The notes under the pieces: generated by a model
Seen by the model: the letters and a program-made list of their open reading frames with translations, nothing else
What the model was told of the DNA's origin: nothing
Databases searched by the model: none
Shown here: one piece after another, positions 1,463 through 13,306 of the stretch
Layout: the number at the start of each line of letters is the position of its first letter
Position numbering within the stretch: the stretch's first letter is position 1
Position numbers and translations under genes: made by a program
NCBI GenBank assembly: GCA_026387965.1
Contig: JAPLKR010000117.1
Span: forward strand, 1-15,604
Length of the DNA: 15,604 nt
Reading direction: 5' to 3'
Source: Fusobacteriota bacterium
Lineage (GTDB): Bacteria; Fusobacteriota; Fusobacteriia; JAPLKR01

Positions 1463-1491
1463 TTCTATTTTTTATGAGTTTATGATATACT
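1463..1491 (+). promoter_or_regulatory. Promoter of the flavin-riboswitch operon
   Basis: TATACT at 1486-1491 is preceded by TGA, giving a good extended -10. The -35 position (TTCTAT, 1463-1468, 17-bp spacer) is poor, which is common for extended -10 promoters. Transcription would start around 1498, just upstream of the riboswitch aptamer. Confidence 0.55.
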
Positions 1492-1506
1492 TATTAAAGA
1501 GTAAAA

Positions 1507-1610
1507 AATTTCGGGGCAGGGTGCGATTCCCGACCAGCGGTGATAGTCCGTAGCATCTAGGTGCGTGGACCGGTGAAATTCCGGTACTGACAGTAAAGTC
1601 TGGCGAAATT
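1507..1610 (+). promoter_or_regulatory. FMN riboswitch (RFN element)
   Basis: The conserved RFN blocks occur in order. The closing stem P1 is AATTTCG (1507-1513) with CGAAATT (1604-1610). Next come GGGGCAGGGTG and ATTCCCGACC (1513-1534), GCGGTGATAGTCC, a variable hairpin (GTCC at 1547-1550 with GGAC at 1567-1570), GACCGGTGAAATTCCGGT, and the 3' block GACAGTAAAGTCTGG. In characterised members, FMN binding stabilises P1 and favours premature termination or translational block. Here a terminator hairpin follows immediately, so control is probably transcriptional: high FMN turns the downstream transporter operon off. This assignment rests on a close match to the known consensus and is the main evidence for the operon's substrate. 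Confidence 0.96.
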
Positions 1611-1616
1611 AAAAAA

Positions 1617-1654
1617 AAACTACGCCCTAGGTTTTTTTAGGCGCGTAGTTTTTT
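1617..1654 (+). terminator. Riboswitch-controlled intrinsic terminator
   Basis: ACTACGC (1619-1625) pairs with GCGTAGT (1643-1649), with an inner CCT/AGG extension, followed by a run of six T (1649-1654). A run of A precedes the 5' arm. It sits 9 bases after the aptamer's P1 stem and 47 bases before the first structural gene, the expected place for a riboswitch expression platform. Confidence 0.85.
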
Positions 1655-1700
1655 AATTTAACACGATTTTTTTTACTTCCAAAATTTTAGGAGGTAACAA

Positions 1701-2507
1701 ATGAAAAAACTCGCATTATTTTTTATCGTCATAGTATGTACTATGACGCTTTTAGCTACACCACTCAGAGTGGTGGCGATTTCGCCCACATCCGTGGGAA
1801 CGATCCAATATTTGGGGGAGAGTTCAAGCATTGTAGGTACTTCACAGTATATGACTGTACCTGGTGCCAAAGTTTTAGGTAATATAACTAATCCGAGCGT
1901 AACTGAAATAGCTATGTTAAATCCAAGTTACGTTATTGTGGATAGCTATACATCCCAGCAAATCGTTGCACAACTTAAAAATCTCAAAATTCCTGTATTA
2001 ATGATTAATCAAAGCTACACTCTTAATGGCGCGTATGACTCTATGAGAGAGATTGCTAAAATTTATGGAAAAGAGAGTCAGATCAATCAACTTATTAATA
2101 AAATGAATAGTTTGATGCAGAAAAACAGCAAAAAAAAACCTATTTCACTTTATTTTATGCTCTCATATGGCAGAGATGGGGATTTCAGCATCAACAACAA
2201 AACGTTTACAAGTCAAATTATGGAAAATCTTGGAATGAAAAACATTATGGATAATTCACCTACAAATCAAGTATCACGAATGGATATACTGGTGAAAGAT
2301 CCAACGGCCATTATTGTTTCGAGTGGTAATATGGGGACTAACTCTGTTACTTTAAGTCAACTCAAATCCACATCGCCATATAATCAACTTAACGCAGTGA
2401 AAAACAACAAAGTCTATTTTATTGATTCGGATACAGCAGATGAACCAGGGCCAAATATGTTGCAGTTAATAGAATTTCTAATTGGGGTGAAAAATGCGAA
2501 TATGTAG
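1701..2507 (+). CDS. Periplasmic binding protein of a BtuF/TroA-type ABC importer, probably flavin-specific
   Basis: The 268-aa protein begins with a signal peptide (MKK, then a hydrophobic core to about residue 19, likely cleaved near Ala19). There is no lipobox Cys, so it should be a free periplasmic protein. The mature part starts with RVVAISPTSVGTIQYLG, the typical opening of cluster A (helical-backbone) binding proteins such as BtuF and FepB. The long linker helix lies around residues 110-140. Glu69 (SVTEIAML) and Asp195 (SRMDIL) fall where BtuF has the two acidic residues that dock on permease arginines. The RBS AGGAGG (1689-1694) lies 6 bases before ATG. It is first in an operon under an FMN riboswitch, so riboflavin or a related flavin is the inferred ligand; a corrinoid, haem or siderophore ligand would fit the family but not the regulation. 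Confidence 0.85.
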   Translation: MKKLALFFIVIVCTMTLLATPLRVVAISPTSVGTIQYLGESSSIVGTSQYMTVPGAKVLGNITNPSVTEIAMLNPSYVIVDSYTSQQIVAQLKNLKIPVLMINQSYTLNGAYDSMREIAKIYGKESQINQLINKMNSLMQKNSKKKPISLYFMLSYGRDGDFSINNKTFTSQIMENLGMKNIMDNSPTNQVSRMDILVKDPTAIIVSSGNMGTNSVTLSQLKSTSPYNQLNAVKNNKVYFIDSDTADEPGPNMLQLIEFLIGVKNANM

Positions 2508-3528
2508 ATGTCTTCTAGTGCCTATATTTATAGGAAGTGCACTTTTATCTTTTGCCAGCGAGCCACATAATTATGGATTTTTGCTTTTCAACACAAATAA
2601 TACTTTTTTTAGCAGTGCAGCCCTAACCTATGAATATGAGCCAAGTTATAATAATGGTTCTCTCGTATCGTATGGGCCTAATGGACCATACCTCTTAACT
2701 AATGGGTTTCAAACGGCAAGTTATGACCAATACTTGAATGCTACAGTGAGTTTCCCCATGAAAAGCTATTCCCTTCAAATAAATGGAAATTATGGAGAAT
2801 CTGGCGCGTTAAAAGGTAACACCTACAACGAACAAAGTCAGGGACTGTCGACTACGACGGGAATTGGAATTCAAAGGAACCTACCAAATTTTCAAGAGGG
2901 TTTGAACATTAATTATCTTAATAACTCCTCAGGAGCTAACGCAAGATTCACACCAGGAGGAACAGTTGGAGTTGATATCGCTCCGTCTTTCCAATATGAA
3001 ACTGGAGCATTTGCGTATGCAGTAGTTGGAGATATGCAGCAAACCTATTCACGAGGAGGCCTGCCGGGACTTGCATTACAACTTGAACCGCAAATGACAT
3101 GGATGCTTAACGATAATTTAACCTATGCCTCACTTTTTGAATGGCGTATTGTGAATAATAATTATATTAATAATGGGATTGTCTCCACTTCAGGGAATCT
3201 AGTAATGGGGGATACACTGGAGTATCAACCCTTGGTATTAATGTATAGAGTACCTCAAATTCAAAATTTAATGCTCACTTTTGAAGTAAAACTTGATTGG
3301 TACAACTTTAGAGCTTGCCAAACTTTTTATGGAATTAACTACAACTCATGGGTGACGTTTGAACCGGATATCCAATATTACTGGCCAATAGCACCCAATA
3401 CGGCAATAAATTTTGATGTAAAAGATGAAATTTCTCAACTCTTACAAGCATCAAATTATGGGAGAAGTCCCAATCAACAAAATTTTGTGATTGGTATGAC
3501 ATTATCAACCTATTTTTTTGGAGGATAA
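2494..3528 (+). CDS. Predicted outer-membrane beta-barrel protein in the flavin-riboswitch operon
   Basis: I do not recognise a named family. The 344-aa product starts with a signal peptide (MRICRC, hydrophobic core, likely cleavage after SFA near residue 22). The mature part has no long hydrophobic helix. It is rich in Asn, Gly, Tyr, Gln and Ser with many alternating polar/hydrophobic stretches, and it ends in a probable terminal beta-strand (VIGMTLSTYFF, then GG), all typical of outer-membrane barrels. It is too short for a TonB-dependent receptor (usually over 600 aa), and I see no plug domain or TonB box. The start overlaps the binding-protein gene by 14 bases and has its own RBS (GGGGTG, 2484-2489), so the two are translated together. 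The inferred role is a channel or receptor bringing the ABC importer's substrate across the outer membrane. Confidence 0.65.
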   Translation: MRICRCLLVPIFIGSALLSFASEPHNYGFLLFNTNNTFFSSAALTYEYEPSYNNGSLVSYGPNGPYLLTNGFQTASYDQYLNATVSFPMKSYSLQINGNYGESGALKGNTYNEQSQGLSTTTGIGIQRNLPNFQEGLNINYLNNSSGANARFTPGGTVGVDIAPSFQYETGAFAYAVVGDMQQTYSRGGLPGLALQLEPQMTWMLNDNLTYASLFEWRIVNNNYINNGIVSTSGNLVMGDTLEYQPLVLMYRVPQIQNLMLTFEVKLDWYNFRACQTFYGINYNSWVTFEPDIQYYWPIAPNTAINFDVKDEISQLLQASNYGRSPNQQNFVIGMTLSTYFFGG

Positions 3529-3544
3529 AATTTAAAGGAAAATT

Positions 3545-4528
3545 ATGAAAAAATTATTTTTATCTTCGATTATTGCTCTTTTTATTGTAGTGGGGATTTT
3601 ATATCTTTATATAGGGCCTATTCACTTTTATTTAGCGAATTTCTTACATAGTGATTCCCCCTTAATGGGTCTATTATTTCAAATGAAAGTTGAAAGACTT
3701 CTAACGGCATACTGCGTAGGGGCTATTTTAGCCTTATGCGGTGTTGTAATGCAAAATTTATTTAGAAACCCCATTGCGGATCCCTATATATTGGGAGTTT
3801 CTTCTGGAGCGGGGATGGGTGTTGGAGTTGCGATGTTTTTAGCGTCTTTTTTTCCAATACTTTCTAATTTTACTGTGACTATGGCATGTGCTTTTATTTT
3901 TGCAATTTTAAGTAGTTTTATTGCACTGTTCTTTTCTCGCGTTAACGGACAAGTTATCTTAACGCGTCTTTTACTCATAGGGATGGCTCTTACTTTTTTT
4001 GAAGGGGCTTTTATTCAAATAATTTTTAGCGTAAATGTACTGAGGAATTTTAATGTGTTTTTATGGTTAATGGGAAGCTTAGACAATGCAAACATGAACT
4101 CAGTTGTTGTTCTTGGGGTTACTTTATGTATATTGATTATCGTATTTACCTCTATGCATCGATCATTTGATTTAATACTTCTTGGGCCAGAAATAGCTCA
4201 CAGCAGTGGTGTGAGAGTTGAACGTGTAAAATGGATAAGTTTATGTTTGGTTTCTTTAGCTGTCGCCCTCGTTGTGAGTTATTGTGGAATTATCGGATTT
4301 GTAGGGATGATTATTCCACATGCCATCAGAATTGTGGTGGGGCCAAAAAATTTAAAGTTAATGATTTTTAGCATGATACTTGGAGCAGTCTTTGTCGCTA
4401 TATGTGACATTATAGCCACAACGCTGATATCTCCTTCAGAACTTCCACTTGGAGCAGTTATTGGTATTATAGGAGCACCTTATTTTATTTTACTTTTAGT
4501 TCATATGAATCGAGGTAAACGAATATGA
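3545..4528 (+). CDS. FecCD/BtuC-family ABC importer permease
   Basis: The 327-aa, strongly hydrophobic protein matches type II importer permeases, which form a homodimeric inner-membrane channel with about ten helices per subunit. Family hallmarks are in order: ERLLTAYCVGAILALCG (residues 50-66), then QNLFRNPIADP and LGVSSGAGMGVG, the coupling-helix region GFVGMIIPHAIR, and the C-terminal ELPLGAVIGIIGAP. Lys48 and Arg51 align with the BtuC arginines that dock the binding protein. It begins 16 bases after the predicted outer-membrane gene (RBS AAAGGA) and overlaps the ATPase gene by 4 bases. The family mostly carries cobalamin, haem or ferric siderophores; the operon's FMN riboswitch suggests a flavin instead. 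Confidence 0.93.
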   Translation: MKKLFLSSIIALFIVVGILYLYIGPIHFYLANFLHSDSPLMGLLFQMKVERLLTAYCVGAILALCGVVMQNLFRNPIADPYILGVSSGAGMGVGVAMFLASFFPILSNFTVTMACAFIFAILSSFIALFFSRVNGQVILTRLLLIGMALTFFEGAFIQIIFSVNVLRNFNVFLWLMGSLDNANMNSVVVLGVTLCILIIVFTSMHRSFDLILLGPEIAHSSGVRVERVKWISLCLVSLAVALVVSYCGIIGFVGMIIPHAIRIVVGPKNLKLMIFSMILGAVFVAICDIIATTLISPSELPLGAVIGIIGAPYFILLLVHMNRGKRI

Positions 4529-5292
4529 GTGTGAAAATAAAAAATTTAACCATAACGTATACAGGAAATAAAATAGTTGAAATTGAATCGTTAGAGTTAG
4601 AAAGTGGGATGTTTCATACGATAATTGGGATGAATGGAAGTGGCAAGACAACTTTGATAAAAGCGATAAGTAGTATGGTGGCTAGGAGCTGCATTGAAGG
4701 TAGTATCAAAGAAAATGGAATAGAAATTACTCATTTATCAGGAAAAAAATTAGCAGAGAGAATAGCGTATGTTCCACAAAAAATATCTATAGAATATGAC
4801 TTTTCGGTAGAAGAATTGGTGAAAATGGGGGGCTTTCGTTATAAAAGAGCAAAGGAGAGTTTATATAAAAATATTATTACGAAATTTGGACTTTTAGAGT
4901 TTGAAAAGAGAAGCATACTAACCTTAAGTGGTGGGGAGTTTCAAAGAGCTCAAATCGCGCGGGCACTCTATCAAGATGCTCCTGTAATTGTTCTCGATGA
5001 GCCGACAGCTGCGCTAGATATTGCTCATAGTGTAGAACTTTATGAATACCTAAAAAAATTGGTAAAAGAGGATAAAAAAACAGTGATACTGATTTCACAT
5101 GATCTTTCATATGTGGCAAATTATTGCGACAGTTTTATTTTGATGTACGATGGAAAAATTGTTGAAAAAGGTAAAGCTGAGCTTGTCATGAGTGAGGTGA
5201 ATTTGATGAAATTTTTTAAATTTGGAGGAAAATTAGAAAAAATTGGTGGACAATATAGTTTGGTAGAAATTAAAAAAGAAAAAAAAGAGTGA
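4525..5292 (+). CDS. ABC importer ATPase, BtuD/FecE type
   Basis: The 255-aa cytosolic ATPase drives the preceding permease. All nucleotide-binding elements are intact: Walker A GMNGSGKT (residues 35-42), Q-loop Gln85 (VPQK), signature LSGGE (134-138), Walker B with VIVLDEP (154-160, catalytic Glu159), D-loop ALD, and H-loop His192 in SHD. The start ATG overlaps the permease stop (ATGA), indicating translational coupling, as expected for two subunits of one complex. The tail (after about residue 240) is Lys/Glu-rich. It closes the riboswitch operon; a weak AT-rich terminator follows. Confidence 0.93.
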   Translation: MSVKIKNLTITYTGNKIVEIESLELESGMFHTIIGMNGSGKTTLIKAISSMVARSCIEGSIKENGIEITHLSGKKLAERIAYVPQKISIEYDFSVEELVKMGGFRYKRAKESLYKNIITKFGLLEFEKRSILTLSGGEFQRAQIARALYQDAPVIVLDEPTAALDIAHSVELYEYLKKLVKEDKKTVILISHDLSYVANYCDSFILMYDGKIVEKGKAELVMSEVNLMKFFKFGGKLEKIGGQYSLVEIKKEKKE

Positions 5293-12731: not shown

Positions 12732-12808
12732 GGGGTTGTAGTTCAGTTGGTTAGAATGCCTGCCTGTCACGCAGGAGGTCGCGAGTTCGAGTCTCGTCAA
12801 TCCCGCCA
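12732..12808 (+). tRNA. tRNA-Asp (GTC)
   Basis: The 77-base cloverleaf has acceptor arm GGGGTTG with CAATCCC (one G-T pair), discriminator G and encoded CCA. The anticodon stem CCTGC/GCAGG holds the loop CTGTCAC, giving anticodon GTC. The T arm GCGAG/CTCGT contains TTCGAGT. Confidence 0.97.
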
Positions 12809-12813
12809 TTTTT

Positions 12814-12889
12814 GCCCAGATAGCTCAGTCGGTAGAGCAGGAGACTGAAAATCTCCGTGTCCGTGGTTCGATTCCGCGTCTGGGCACCA
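12814..12889 (+). tRNA. tRNA-Phe (GAA)
   Basis: The 76-base cloverleaf has acceptor arm GCCCAGA with TCTGGGC, discriminator A and encoded CCA. The anticodon stem GGAGA/TCTCC holds loop CTGAAAA (anticodon GAA). It lies 5 bases after tRNA-Asp. Confidence 0.97.
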
Positions 12890-12893
12890 TAGT

Positions 12894-12970
12894 GCCTCTT
12901 TAGCTCAGTTGGCTAGAGCAACTGACTTGTAATCAGTAGGTCGTTGGTTCAACTCCGACAAGAGGCACCA
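12894..12970 (+). tRNA. tRNA-Thr (TGT)
   Basis: The 77-base cloverleaf has acceptor arm GCCTCTT with AAGAGGC, discriminator A and encoded CCA. The anticodon stem ACTGA/TCAGT holds loop CTTGTAA (anticodon TGT). The T arm GTTGG/CCGAC contains one T-G pair. Last of the three-gene tRNA cluster. Confidence 0.97.
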
Positions 12971-12985
12971 TTTTTCAAAATGAGT

Positions 12986-13009
12986 AGAGATTTCGCATCT
13001 CTTTTTTTT
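12986..13009 (+). terminator. Intrinsic terminator of the tRNA operon
   Basis: AGAGAT (12986-12991) pairs with ATCTCT (12997-13002) around TTCGC, followed by eight T ending at 13009. It is 16 bases after tRNA-Thr and 15 bases before the ArsR-type gene start. Confidence 0.85.
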
Positions 13010-13024
13010 ATATTAGGAGAAATT

Positions 13025-13306
13025 ATGACTATTGAAAGAGCAGAACTCATCTTTAAAATGTTATCTAATGAAATTAGAATAAAAATTTTAAAGATATTGG
13101 TAAGCCAAGGCACAACAGGGATTTGTGTAAGTGGGATGGAAGATATCATAAAATGTAAACAGTCGAGTGTAAGTCAACATCTTGCCCACCTTAGAAATAG
13201 TGGTATCATTACTGCCGAAAAGAAAGGCACAAAAGTTTGTTATAAGTTGGTAGATGAAGATGTACTAAAAATTATTTCAAGCATTGAAATAGAAAATATT
13301 GTGTAA
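13025..13306 (+). CDS. ArsR/SmtB-family winged-helix repressor
   Basis: The 93-aa protein has the standard small ArsR layout: helix 1 (ERAELIFKMLSNEIRIKILKIL), a recognition helix around QSSVSQHLAHLRNSGII (46-62), and a wing (EKKGTKVCYKL). Such proteins usually repress metal, metalloid or sulfur-stress genes and release DNA on ligand binding. Three cysteines (34, 44, 72) could form a thiol-based or metal-sensing site, but they do not match the ArsR ELCVCDL motif exactly (here GICVSG). The ATG at 13025 follows AGGAGA (13014-13019); an in-frame GTG at 12944 lies inside tRNA-Thr and is rejected. No efflux or reductase gene is adjacent, so its target is unknown. It may depend on read-through of the tRNA terminator. 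Confidence 0.85.
   Translation: MTIERAELIFKMLSNEIRIKILKILVSQGTTGICVSGMEDIIKCKQSSVSQHLAHLRNSGIITAEKKGTKVCYKLVDEDVLKIISSIEIENIV

What the first reader, a model, noticed from the sequence alone, without database searches (positions are those of the whole stretch)
1463..5292. Candidate new flavin uptake system: FMN riboswitch controlling a BtuFCD-type importer with its own outer-membrane protein
Seen: a textbook RFN aptamer plus terminator, directly followed by a binding protein, a predicted beta-barrel protein, a FecCD/BtuC permease and its ATPase, packed with overlaps of 14 and 4 bases. Known: FMN riboswitches govern riboflavin synthesis or uptake genes, and described flavin transporters (RibU/ECF, RibM/PnuX, RibXY, RibN, ImpX, RfuABCD) are not of the BtuCDF type. 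Inference: this operon is a type II ABC importer for riboflavin, FMN or a flavin precursor spanning both membranes of a diderm cell. I am not aware of a characterised member.
Basis: partly seen in the sequence, partly recalled or inferred. Interest (0 to 1): 0.87.

Follow-up and report, generated by a model that had tools for sequence, protein, structure and literature searches.

The report
Vitamin importer under altered FMN riboswitch
A bacterium that apparently can make neither vitamin B2 nor vitamin B12 carries a B12-type import pump, with its own probable outer-membrane channel, under an RNA switch of the vitamin-B2 family whose ligand-reading part has been changed, so what the switch senses and what the pump carries are open, testable questions.

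Summary
The operon is real: RF00050 hit, terminator, binding protein, barrel-like protein, FecCD permease, ATPase. The aptamer is not textbook. It deviates at 11 of 65 near-invariant columns. The base that hydrogen-bonds FMN's ring (A99 in F. nucleatum numbering) is lost with about five neighbouring bases, and A63 is G. The same genome's other FMN riboswitch deviates at none and controls an ImpX-type flavin transporter. The window's terminator and a competing antiterminator are intact, so it still looks like a ligand-OFF attenuator. The genome (95.5% complete) lacks RibH, GTP cyclohydrolase II and EcfT, so it should need flavin import. It also has MetH and a methylaspartate (glutamate) mutase operon, with no corrinoid synthesis methylases, no cobalamin riboswitch and no other strong FecCD permease. 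The nearest permeases and binding protein belong to btu operons under cobalamin riboswitches, though on long branches. 'Flavin importer' is therefore plausible but not established; corrinoid import is a close rival. No ortholog was found in 98 same-class genomes or in two GTDB contig scans, so the association is known from one genome. Best reading: a BtuFCD-derived importer under a remodelled FMN-class riboswitch, cargo probably a flavin or flavin-derived compound (about 0.45) or a corrinoid (about 0.36).

The parts
1503..1614 (+). FMN-class (RFN) aptamer with altered ligand core: J6-1 about 5 nt shorter (GGAUGrrAGA becomes GGC-GA), A63 to G, J3-4 changed; compensatory pair 32/83 G-C to A-U
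   Evidence: cmscan RF00050 76.2 bits; alignment with same-class RFNs
1554..1569 (+). aptamer strand that can pair with the terminator's 5' arm (antiterminator)
   Evidence: duplex -19.4 kcal/mol with 1619-1633; shuffled aptamers -12.8 +/- 2.3, 11 of 1000 as low
1615..1653 (+). intrinsic terminator hairpin with T-run; its 5' arm 1619-1633 is shared with the antiterminator
   Evidence: -17.7 kcal/mol for 1617-1660; 0 of 500 shuffles as low
1689..1695 (+). ribosome-binding site AGGAGGT of the binding-protein gene
   Evidence: read from the sequence
1701..2507 (+). substrate-binding protein, 268 aa, BtuF/FecB type (Peripla_BP_2), N-terminal signal-like helix, no lipobox seen
   Evidence: Pfam PF01497 E 2e-24; AF2 pLDDT 87; VIA-align Z 23-25 to heme and B12 binding proteins
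2494..3528 (+). orphan 344-aa secreted protein, probable outer-membrane beta-barrel
   Evidence: no family or homolog; beta alternation 0.219 against 0.099 shuffled
3545..4528 (+). FecCD/BtuC-type permease, 327 aa, the only strong FecCD match in the genome
   Evidence: PF01032 E 3e-78; genome search; tree
4525..5292 (+). BtuD/HmuV-type ATPase, 255 aa
   Evidence: ABC_tran E 7e-28; best NCBIfam HmuV-like 187.8 bits and corrinoid ATPase 179.5 bits, both below cut-off

Best explanation
The locus is a BtuFCD-derived type II ABC importer with its own probable outer-membrane barrel, switched off at transcription by a ligand-sensing leader that evolved from an FMN riboswitch but whose ligand pocket has been remodelled. 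When ligand is scarce, aptamer strand 1554-1569 pairs with the terminator's 5' arm and the operon is read; when ligand binds, the aptamer holds that strand, the terminator forms and import stops. Because an OFF switch on an importer normally senses the cargo or its product, the cargo is most likely a flavin or flavin-derived compound in a cell that seems unable to make riboflavin, probably not recognised in the canonical FMN mode. Shown by computation: leader anatomy, altered core, operon, missing riboflavin genes. Inferred: OM location of the barrel, direction of control, cargo and ligand.
For: RF00050 match above the gathering score. Mutually exclusive antiterminator and terminator. No RibH (80 of 98 class genomes have it) and no GTP cyclohydrolase II, but RibF present; no EcfT/CbiQ, hence no ECF-RibU. 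RFNs in the class otherwise sit on rib genes, ImpX-type EamA genes or an FGGY kinase. Bases that hold the ribityl-phosphate (G10, G11, G33, G62, G84) and A85/G98 are kept, while A99 is lost (A48, A85-G98, A99, G10, G11, G62 contacts from PMC7824784; G33 and G84 from memory). Permease and binding protein lie on long branches (1.83 and 1.65 changes per site), as a change of substrate would leave.
Against: A99 is A in all 30 comparison RFNs and in the genome's own second RFN; its loss predicts poor FMN binding. Flavin import is already provided by an ImpX-type gene under a canonical RFN. The permease falls among BtuC of cobalamin-riboswitch operons (support 93/94, not conclusive), and the genome needs B12. 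No ortholog was found elsewhere.
Confidence: 0.45

Rival explanations
1. It is the cell's corrinoid (B12) importer, a diverged BtuFCD in which a small barrel takes the place of BtuB. The FMN-class leader was captured (for example from the impX leader) and its pocket has since changed so that it senses something other than FMN, or nothing.
For: Only strong FecCD permease in the genome. MetH and a complete methylaspartate mutase S/L/E + ammonia-lyase operon need B12. No precorrin-type methylases: the one TP_methylase hit is RsmI-like. No cobalamin riboswitch, no ECF. Nearest permeases (36%) and nearest class binding protein (27%) are in btu operons under cobalamin riboswitches; permease tree 93/94. 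ShuT's heme tyrosine (Y67) aligns with Asn, whereas BtuF Y50 and F168 align with Tyr and Phe (roles of these residues from memory).
Against: FMN riboswitches described so far control flavin-related genes (PMC4418817, PMC3766115). BtuF, BtuC and BtuD NCBIfam cut-offs are not met. Many B12 users lack recognised importers (general knowledge), so the need is not proof. A B12-sized ligand is hard to fit in an RFN pocket.
Confidence: 0.36
2. The aptamer is a decayed FMN riboswitch that no longer senses any ligand; the operon is read at a constant level and its cargo cannot be inferred from the leader.
For: 11 of 65 near-invariant columns changed, including the FMN-reading base.
Against: Changes are confined to the ligand junctions, P1 and one compensated pair; all loops, the antiterminator and the terminator are kept, which decay would not spare.
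Confidence: 0.12
3. It is a heme or siderophore importer under an unusual leader.
For: The fold of the binding protein is equally close to heme binding proteins (Z about 24) and BtuF (Z about 23.5); the ATPase scores best with HmuV; HmuU is the best PDB match of the permease.
Against: The heme-ligating tyrosine of ShuT aligns with Asn; no iron-linked gene in the operon; no reason for an FMN-class leader.
Confidence: 0.07

Closest known systems
FMN riboswitch (RFN element, RF00050)
   Same: six-helix architecture, conserved loop motifs, side-chain contacts, transcription-attenuation OFF platform
   Different: A99 lost and J6-1 about 5 nt shorter, A63 to G, J3-4 changed
Variant FMN riboswitches of Clostridioides difficile and others (Atilho et al. 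2019, as reported in PMC11477304)
   Same: RFN scaffold with pocket changes upstream of a transporter gene
   Different: those control an efflux pump as an ON switch and, from memory of the abstract, change the ribityl/phosphate contacts; here those contacts are kept, the ring-edge contact is lost, and the platform looks OFF
BtuBFCD cobalamin importers under cobalamin riboswitches
   Same: binding protein, FecCD permease, ATPase and an outer-membrane protein in one operon; nearest sequence relatives
   Different: about 36% (permease) and 27% (binding protein) identity; no TonB-dependent receptor but a 344-aa orphan barrel; FMN-class leader instead of a cobalamin riboswitch
RibXY / RfuABCD flavin ABC systems
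   Same: ABC-type flavin uptake, FMN riboswitch in front in some genomes
   Different: RibXY is ThiXYZ-like (PMC3766115) and RfuABCD is another ABC type; neither uses FecCD/BtuF-type proteins
ImpX (EamA type) riboflavin transporter
   Same: under an FMN riboswitch, present in this genome (C24)
   Different: single secondary transporter; unrelated to the window operon

Membership tests
FMN riboswitch (RF00050) | covariance-model score over the curated gathering score | tested here: met
   76.2 against 66.2 bits
FMN riboswitch (RF00050) | conserved FMN-contacting core (A48, A85-G98, A99; G10/G11/G62) | tested here: not met
   A99 replaced or deleted, J6-1 shortened, A63 to G; the other contacts are kept, A48 ambiguous
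FMN riboswitch (RF00050) | binds FMN | not testable with these tools
   needs in-line probing or ITC
FMN riboswitch (RF00050) | controls flavin synthesis or uptake genes | tested here: inconclusive
   downstream importer of unknown cargo; no second case among 60 class genomes
BtuFCD cobalamin importer | Peripla_BP_2 + FecCD + ABC ATPase operon | tested here: met
BtuFCD cobalamin importer | NCBIfam equivalog cut-offs for BtuF, BtuC, BtuD | tested here: not met
   57.5 of 234, 180.5 of 334 and 120.1 of 281 bits
BtuFCD cobalamin importer | cobalamin riboswitch or BtuB next to it | tested here: not met
   no RF00174 in the genome, no receptor in the operon
BtuFCD cobalamin importer | permease groups with BtuC of cobalamin-riboswitch operons | tested here: inconclusive
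   support 93/94 with a long branch of 1.83
BtuFCD cobalamin importer | binding protein binds corrinoid | not testable with these tools
   needs purified protein
Described flavin importers (RibU/ECF, RibXY, RfuABCD, ImpX, RibN, RibM, RibZ, RfnT) | homology of the window proteins to these families | tested here: not met
   Pfam/NCBIfam give only FecCD/Peripla_BP_2/ABC families; the nature of the described importers is from PMC4418817 and PMC3766115
Heme importer (ShuT/HmuUV type) | axial heme tyrosine of the binding protein | tested here: not met
   ShuT Y67 aligns with Asn in the window protein (residue role from memory)

The most novel reading that the evidence does not exclude
The leader is a new FMN-riboswitch-derived class that has given up reading the pyrimidine edge of the flavin ring (A99 gone) while keeping the contacts to the sugar-phosphate side chain. 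It now senses a ligand that has dimethylbenzene and ribose-phosphate parts but no pyrimidine edge, such as alpha-ribazole phosphate, the lower-ligand nucleotide of B12, and so controls a B12-type importer.
Probability: 0.06. Interest if true: 0.92.

Novelty: new variant of a known kind. Interest (0 to 1): 0.62.

Why it matters
If the cargo is a flavin, this would be the first BtuCDF-type flavin importer that I could find, with a private outer-membrane route, in a diderm that cannot make riboflavin. If the cargo is a corrinoid, a B12 importer is controlled by an FMN-riboswitch descendant. Either way the aptamer is a natural test of how an FMN riboswitch changes its ligand: the ring-edge contact is lost and the side-chain contacts are kept, which appears to be the converse of the known C. 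difficile variants. Genome annotation by RF00050 alone would call this an FMN-controlled flavin gene without warning.

Tried and rejected
Single-sequence AlphaFold of the barrel failed (pLDDT 28.6), so no fold search was made with it. A search for the barrel in 98 class genomes found only itself. The first GTDB contig scan with a binding-protein alignment found no relative; the second, with the permease, found 17 loci at 29-36% identity, none with an FMN riboswitch. Fold comparison could not separate heme, B12 and siderophore binding proteins. The Atilho 2019 paper is not held. Paper searches found no BtuCDF/FecCD-type flavin importer and no FMN-riboswitch-controlled btu operon. An assembly error as the cause of the altered core is thought unlikely: several independent core changes plus a compensated pair, but it was not excluded by reads.

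Full report
OBSERVATION. The operon is as described. Rfam finds RF00050 at 1503-1614 with 76.2 bits (gathering score 66.2). A terminator hairpin follows (1615-1653). Then come a Peripla_BP_2 binding protein (1701-2507), a 344-aa protein without any family match (2494-3528), a FecCD permease (3545-4528) and an ABC ATPase (4525-5292), with overlaps of 14 and 4 bases. The operon lies between an acyltransferase gene (fabD-like) and an acyl-carrier-protein-like ORF followed by a ketoacyl synthase (fabF-like), so it interrupts a fatty-acid synthesis cluster.

THE LEADER. An expression platform is clearly present. Aptamer strand 1554-1569 can pair with 1619-1633, the 5' arm of the terminator (-19.4 kcal/mol; 11 of 1000 shuffles as low), so that aptamer and antiterminator exclude each other. 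This is the layout of a ligand-OFF attenuator; the direction is inferred from anatomy. The aptamer, however, is not textbook. Against 30 other RFNs of the same class it departs at 11 of 65 near-invariant columns, while the other RFN of the same genome departs at none. With F. nucleatum numbering (3F2Q sequence recalled from memory; base identities agree with the contacts given in PMC7824784), A99, which hydrogen-bonds the ring and is A in all 30 others, is C or deleted. J6-1 is about 5 nt shorter, A63 is G, and the J3-4 bases 47-48 are changed or shifted. The pair 32/83 changes from G-C to A-U, a compensated change. G10, G11, G33, U61, G62, G84, A85 and G98 are kept. So the ring-edge contact is gone and the side-chain contacts remain.

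THE GENOME. The window lies in a 1.79-Mb, 141-contig genome, 95.5% complete, alone in its family among the held genomes; the class is probably Fusobacteriia (inference from the company it keeps, not shown). It has two RFNs. The other one (C24, 91.5 bits) precedes an EamA transporter that is 40% identical over its length to an RFN-controlled EamA protein of the class, that is, ImpX-type; ImpX of F. nucleatum is a proven riboflavin transporter (PMC4418817). The genome lacks RibH and GTP cyclohydrolase II, has RibF, and has no EcfT/CbiQ. It should therefore need flavin import, for which ImpX may suffice. It also has a full-length MetH and a methylaspartate mutase S/L/E + methylaspartate ammonia-lyase operon over curated cut-offs, so it needs B12. 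Only one TP_methylase, RsmI-like, is present, there is no cobalamin riboswitch, and the window's permease is its only strong FecCD match; the second, weak hit is the permease of a Znu-like ABC-3 system.

RELATIVES. In 98 class genomes the best binding-protein matches are 27-30% identical. The best one (G027) is a BtuF-like protein in an operon of TonB-dependent receptor, binding protein, permease and ATPase under a cobalamin riboswitch. A permease scan of GTDB contigs gave 17 distant loci, the nearest (Mucispirillum, Auribacter, 36%) in btu operons under cobalamin riboswitches. In a tree the window permease sits in a group of ten with six such permeases (support 93/94), on a branch of 1.83 changes per site; the binding-protein tree is unresolved. 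The barrel has no relative. A census of the RFNs in 60 class genomes, by the first open frames of 36 loci and by the adjacency of RibH for the rest, shows rib operons, EamA genes and an FGGY kinase downstream, never a binding-protein operon. The association is thus known from one genome, although closely related genomes are lacking.

WHAT IT IS AND HOW IT WORKS. Well supported: a BtuFCD-derived type II importer plus a probable outer-membrane barrel under an FMN-class attenuator with a remodelled pocket. Cargo and ligand are inferred. An OFF switch on an importer usually senses the cargo or its product. The RFN ancestry and the riboflavin auxotrophy point to a flavin or flavin-derived compound (0.45). 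The protein ancestry and the B12 need point to a corrinoid (0.36). Decay of the switch (0.12) is less likely because loops and platform are intact, and heme or siderophore (0.07) is disfavoured by the missing heme tyrosine. The folds of heme, B12 and siderophore binding proteins cannot be told apart here.

COMPARISON WITH THE KNOWN. Flavin transporters described so far (RibU, RibM, RibN, RfuABCD, RibXY, ImpX, RibZ, RfnT) are not FecCD-type (PMC4418817, PMC3766115). No paper found describes a BtuCDF-type flavin importer or an FMN-riboswitch-controlled btu operon; the library holds only open-licence papers. Variant FMN riboswitches with altered ligands are known from Clostridium and Atopobium; in C. 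difficile the variant is an ON switch for an efflux protein (PMC11477304). This one differs in which contacts are lost and in its OFF platform. It is filed as a new variant of a known kind: by score an RF00050 member, but not by its binding core; by homology BtuFCD-like, but below every BtuF/C/D equivalog cut-off.

Noticed in passing
L112:348-1883 (G006:C18), L022 (G013), L023 (G019): An FMN riboswitch directly upstream of an FGGY-family kinase (about 512 aa in L112) in three same-class genomes; PMC4418817 lists one similar FMN-riboswitch-linked carbohydrate kinase in Clostridium ljungdahlii. Function unexplained.
   Followed up: partly
G000:C24 (L001:1501-2607): A canonical FMN riboswitch with an ImpX-type EamA gene in a genome lacking RibH and GTP cyclohydrolase II; PMC4418817 reported impX only in bacteria that have the riboflavin pathway. 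G057 (93% complete, no RibH) has the same arrangement (L019).
   Followed up: partly
window 1727-1748: A perfect hairpin (CGTCATAGTATGTACTATGACG) followed by CTTTTAG inside the first codons of the binding-protein gene, terminator-like in the consensus scan; the scan finds about as many in shuffled sequence.
   Followed up: no
G000:C65 (L117:2785-7664): Complete methylaspartate pathway operon (GlmS, GlmL, GlmE, methylaspartate ammonia-lyase), suggesting glutamate fermentation dependent on adenosylcobalamin.
   Followed up: partly
window 12732-12970 and 12944-13306: tRNA-Asp, tRNA-Phe, tRNA-Thr cluster; the ArsR-family ORF listed from 12944 begins inside tRNA-Thr, so its true start must lie downstream.
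   Followed up: no
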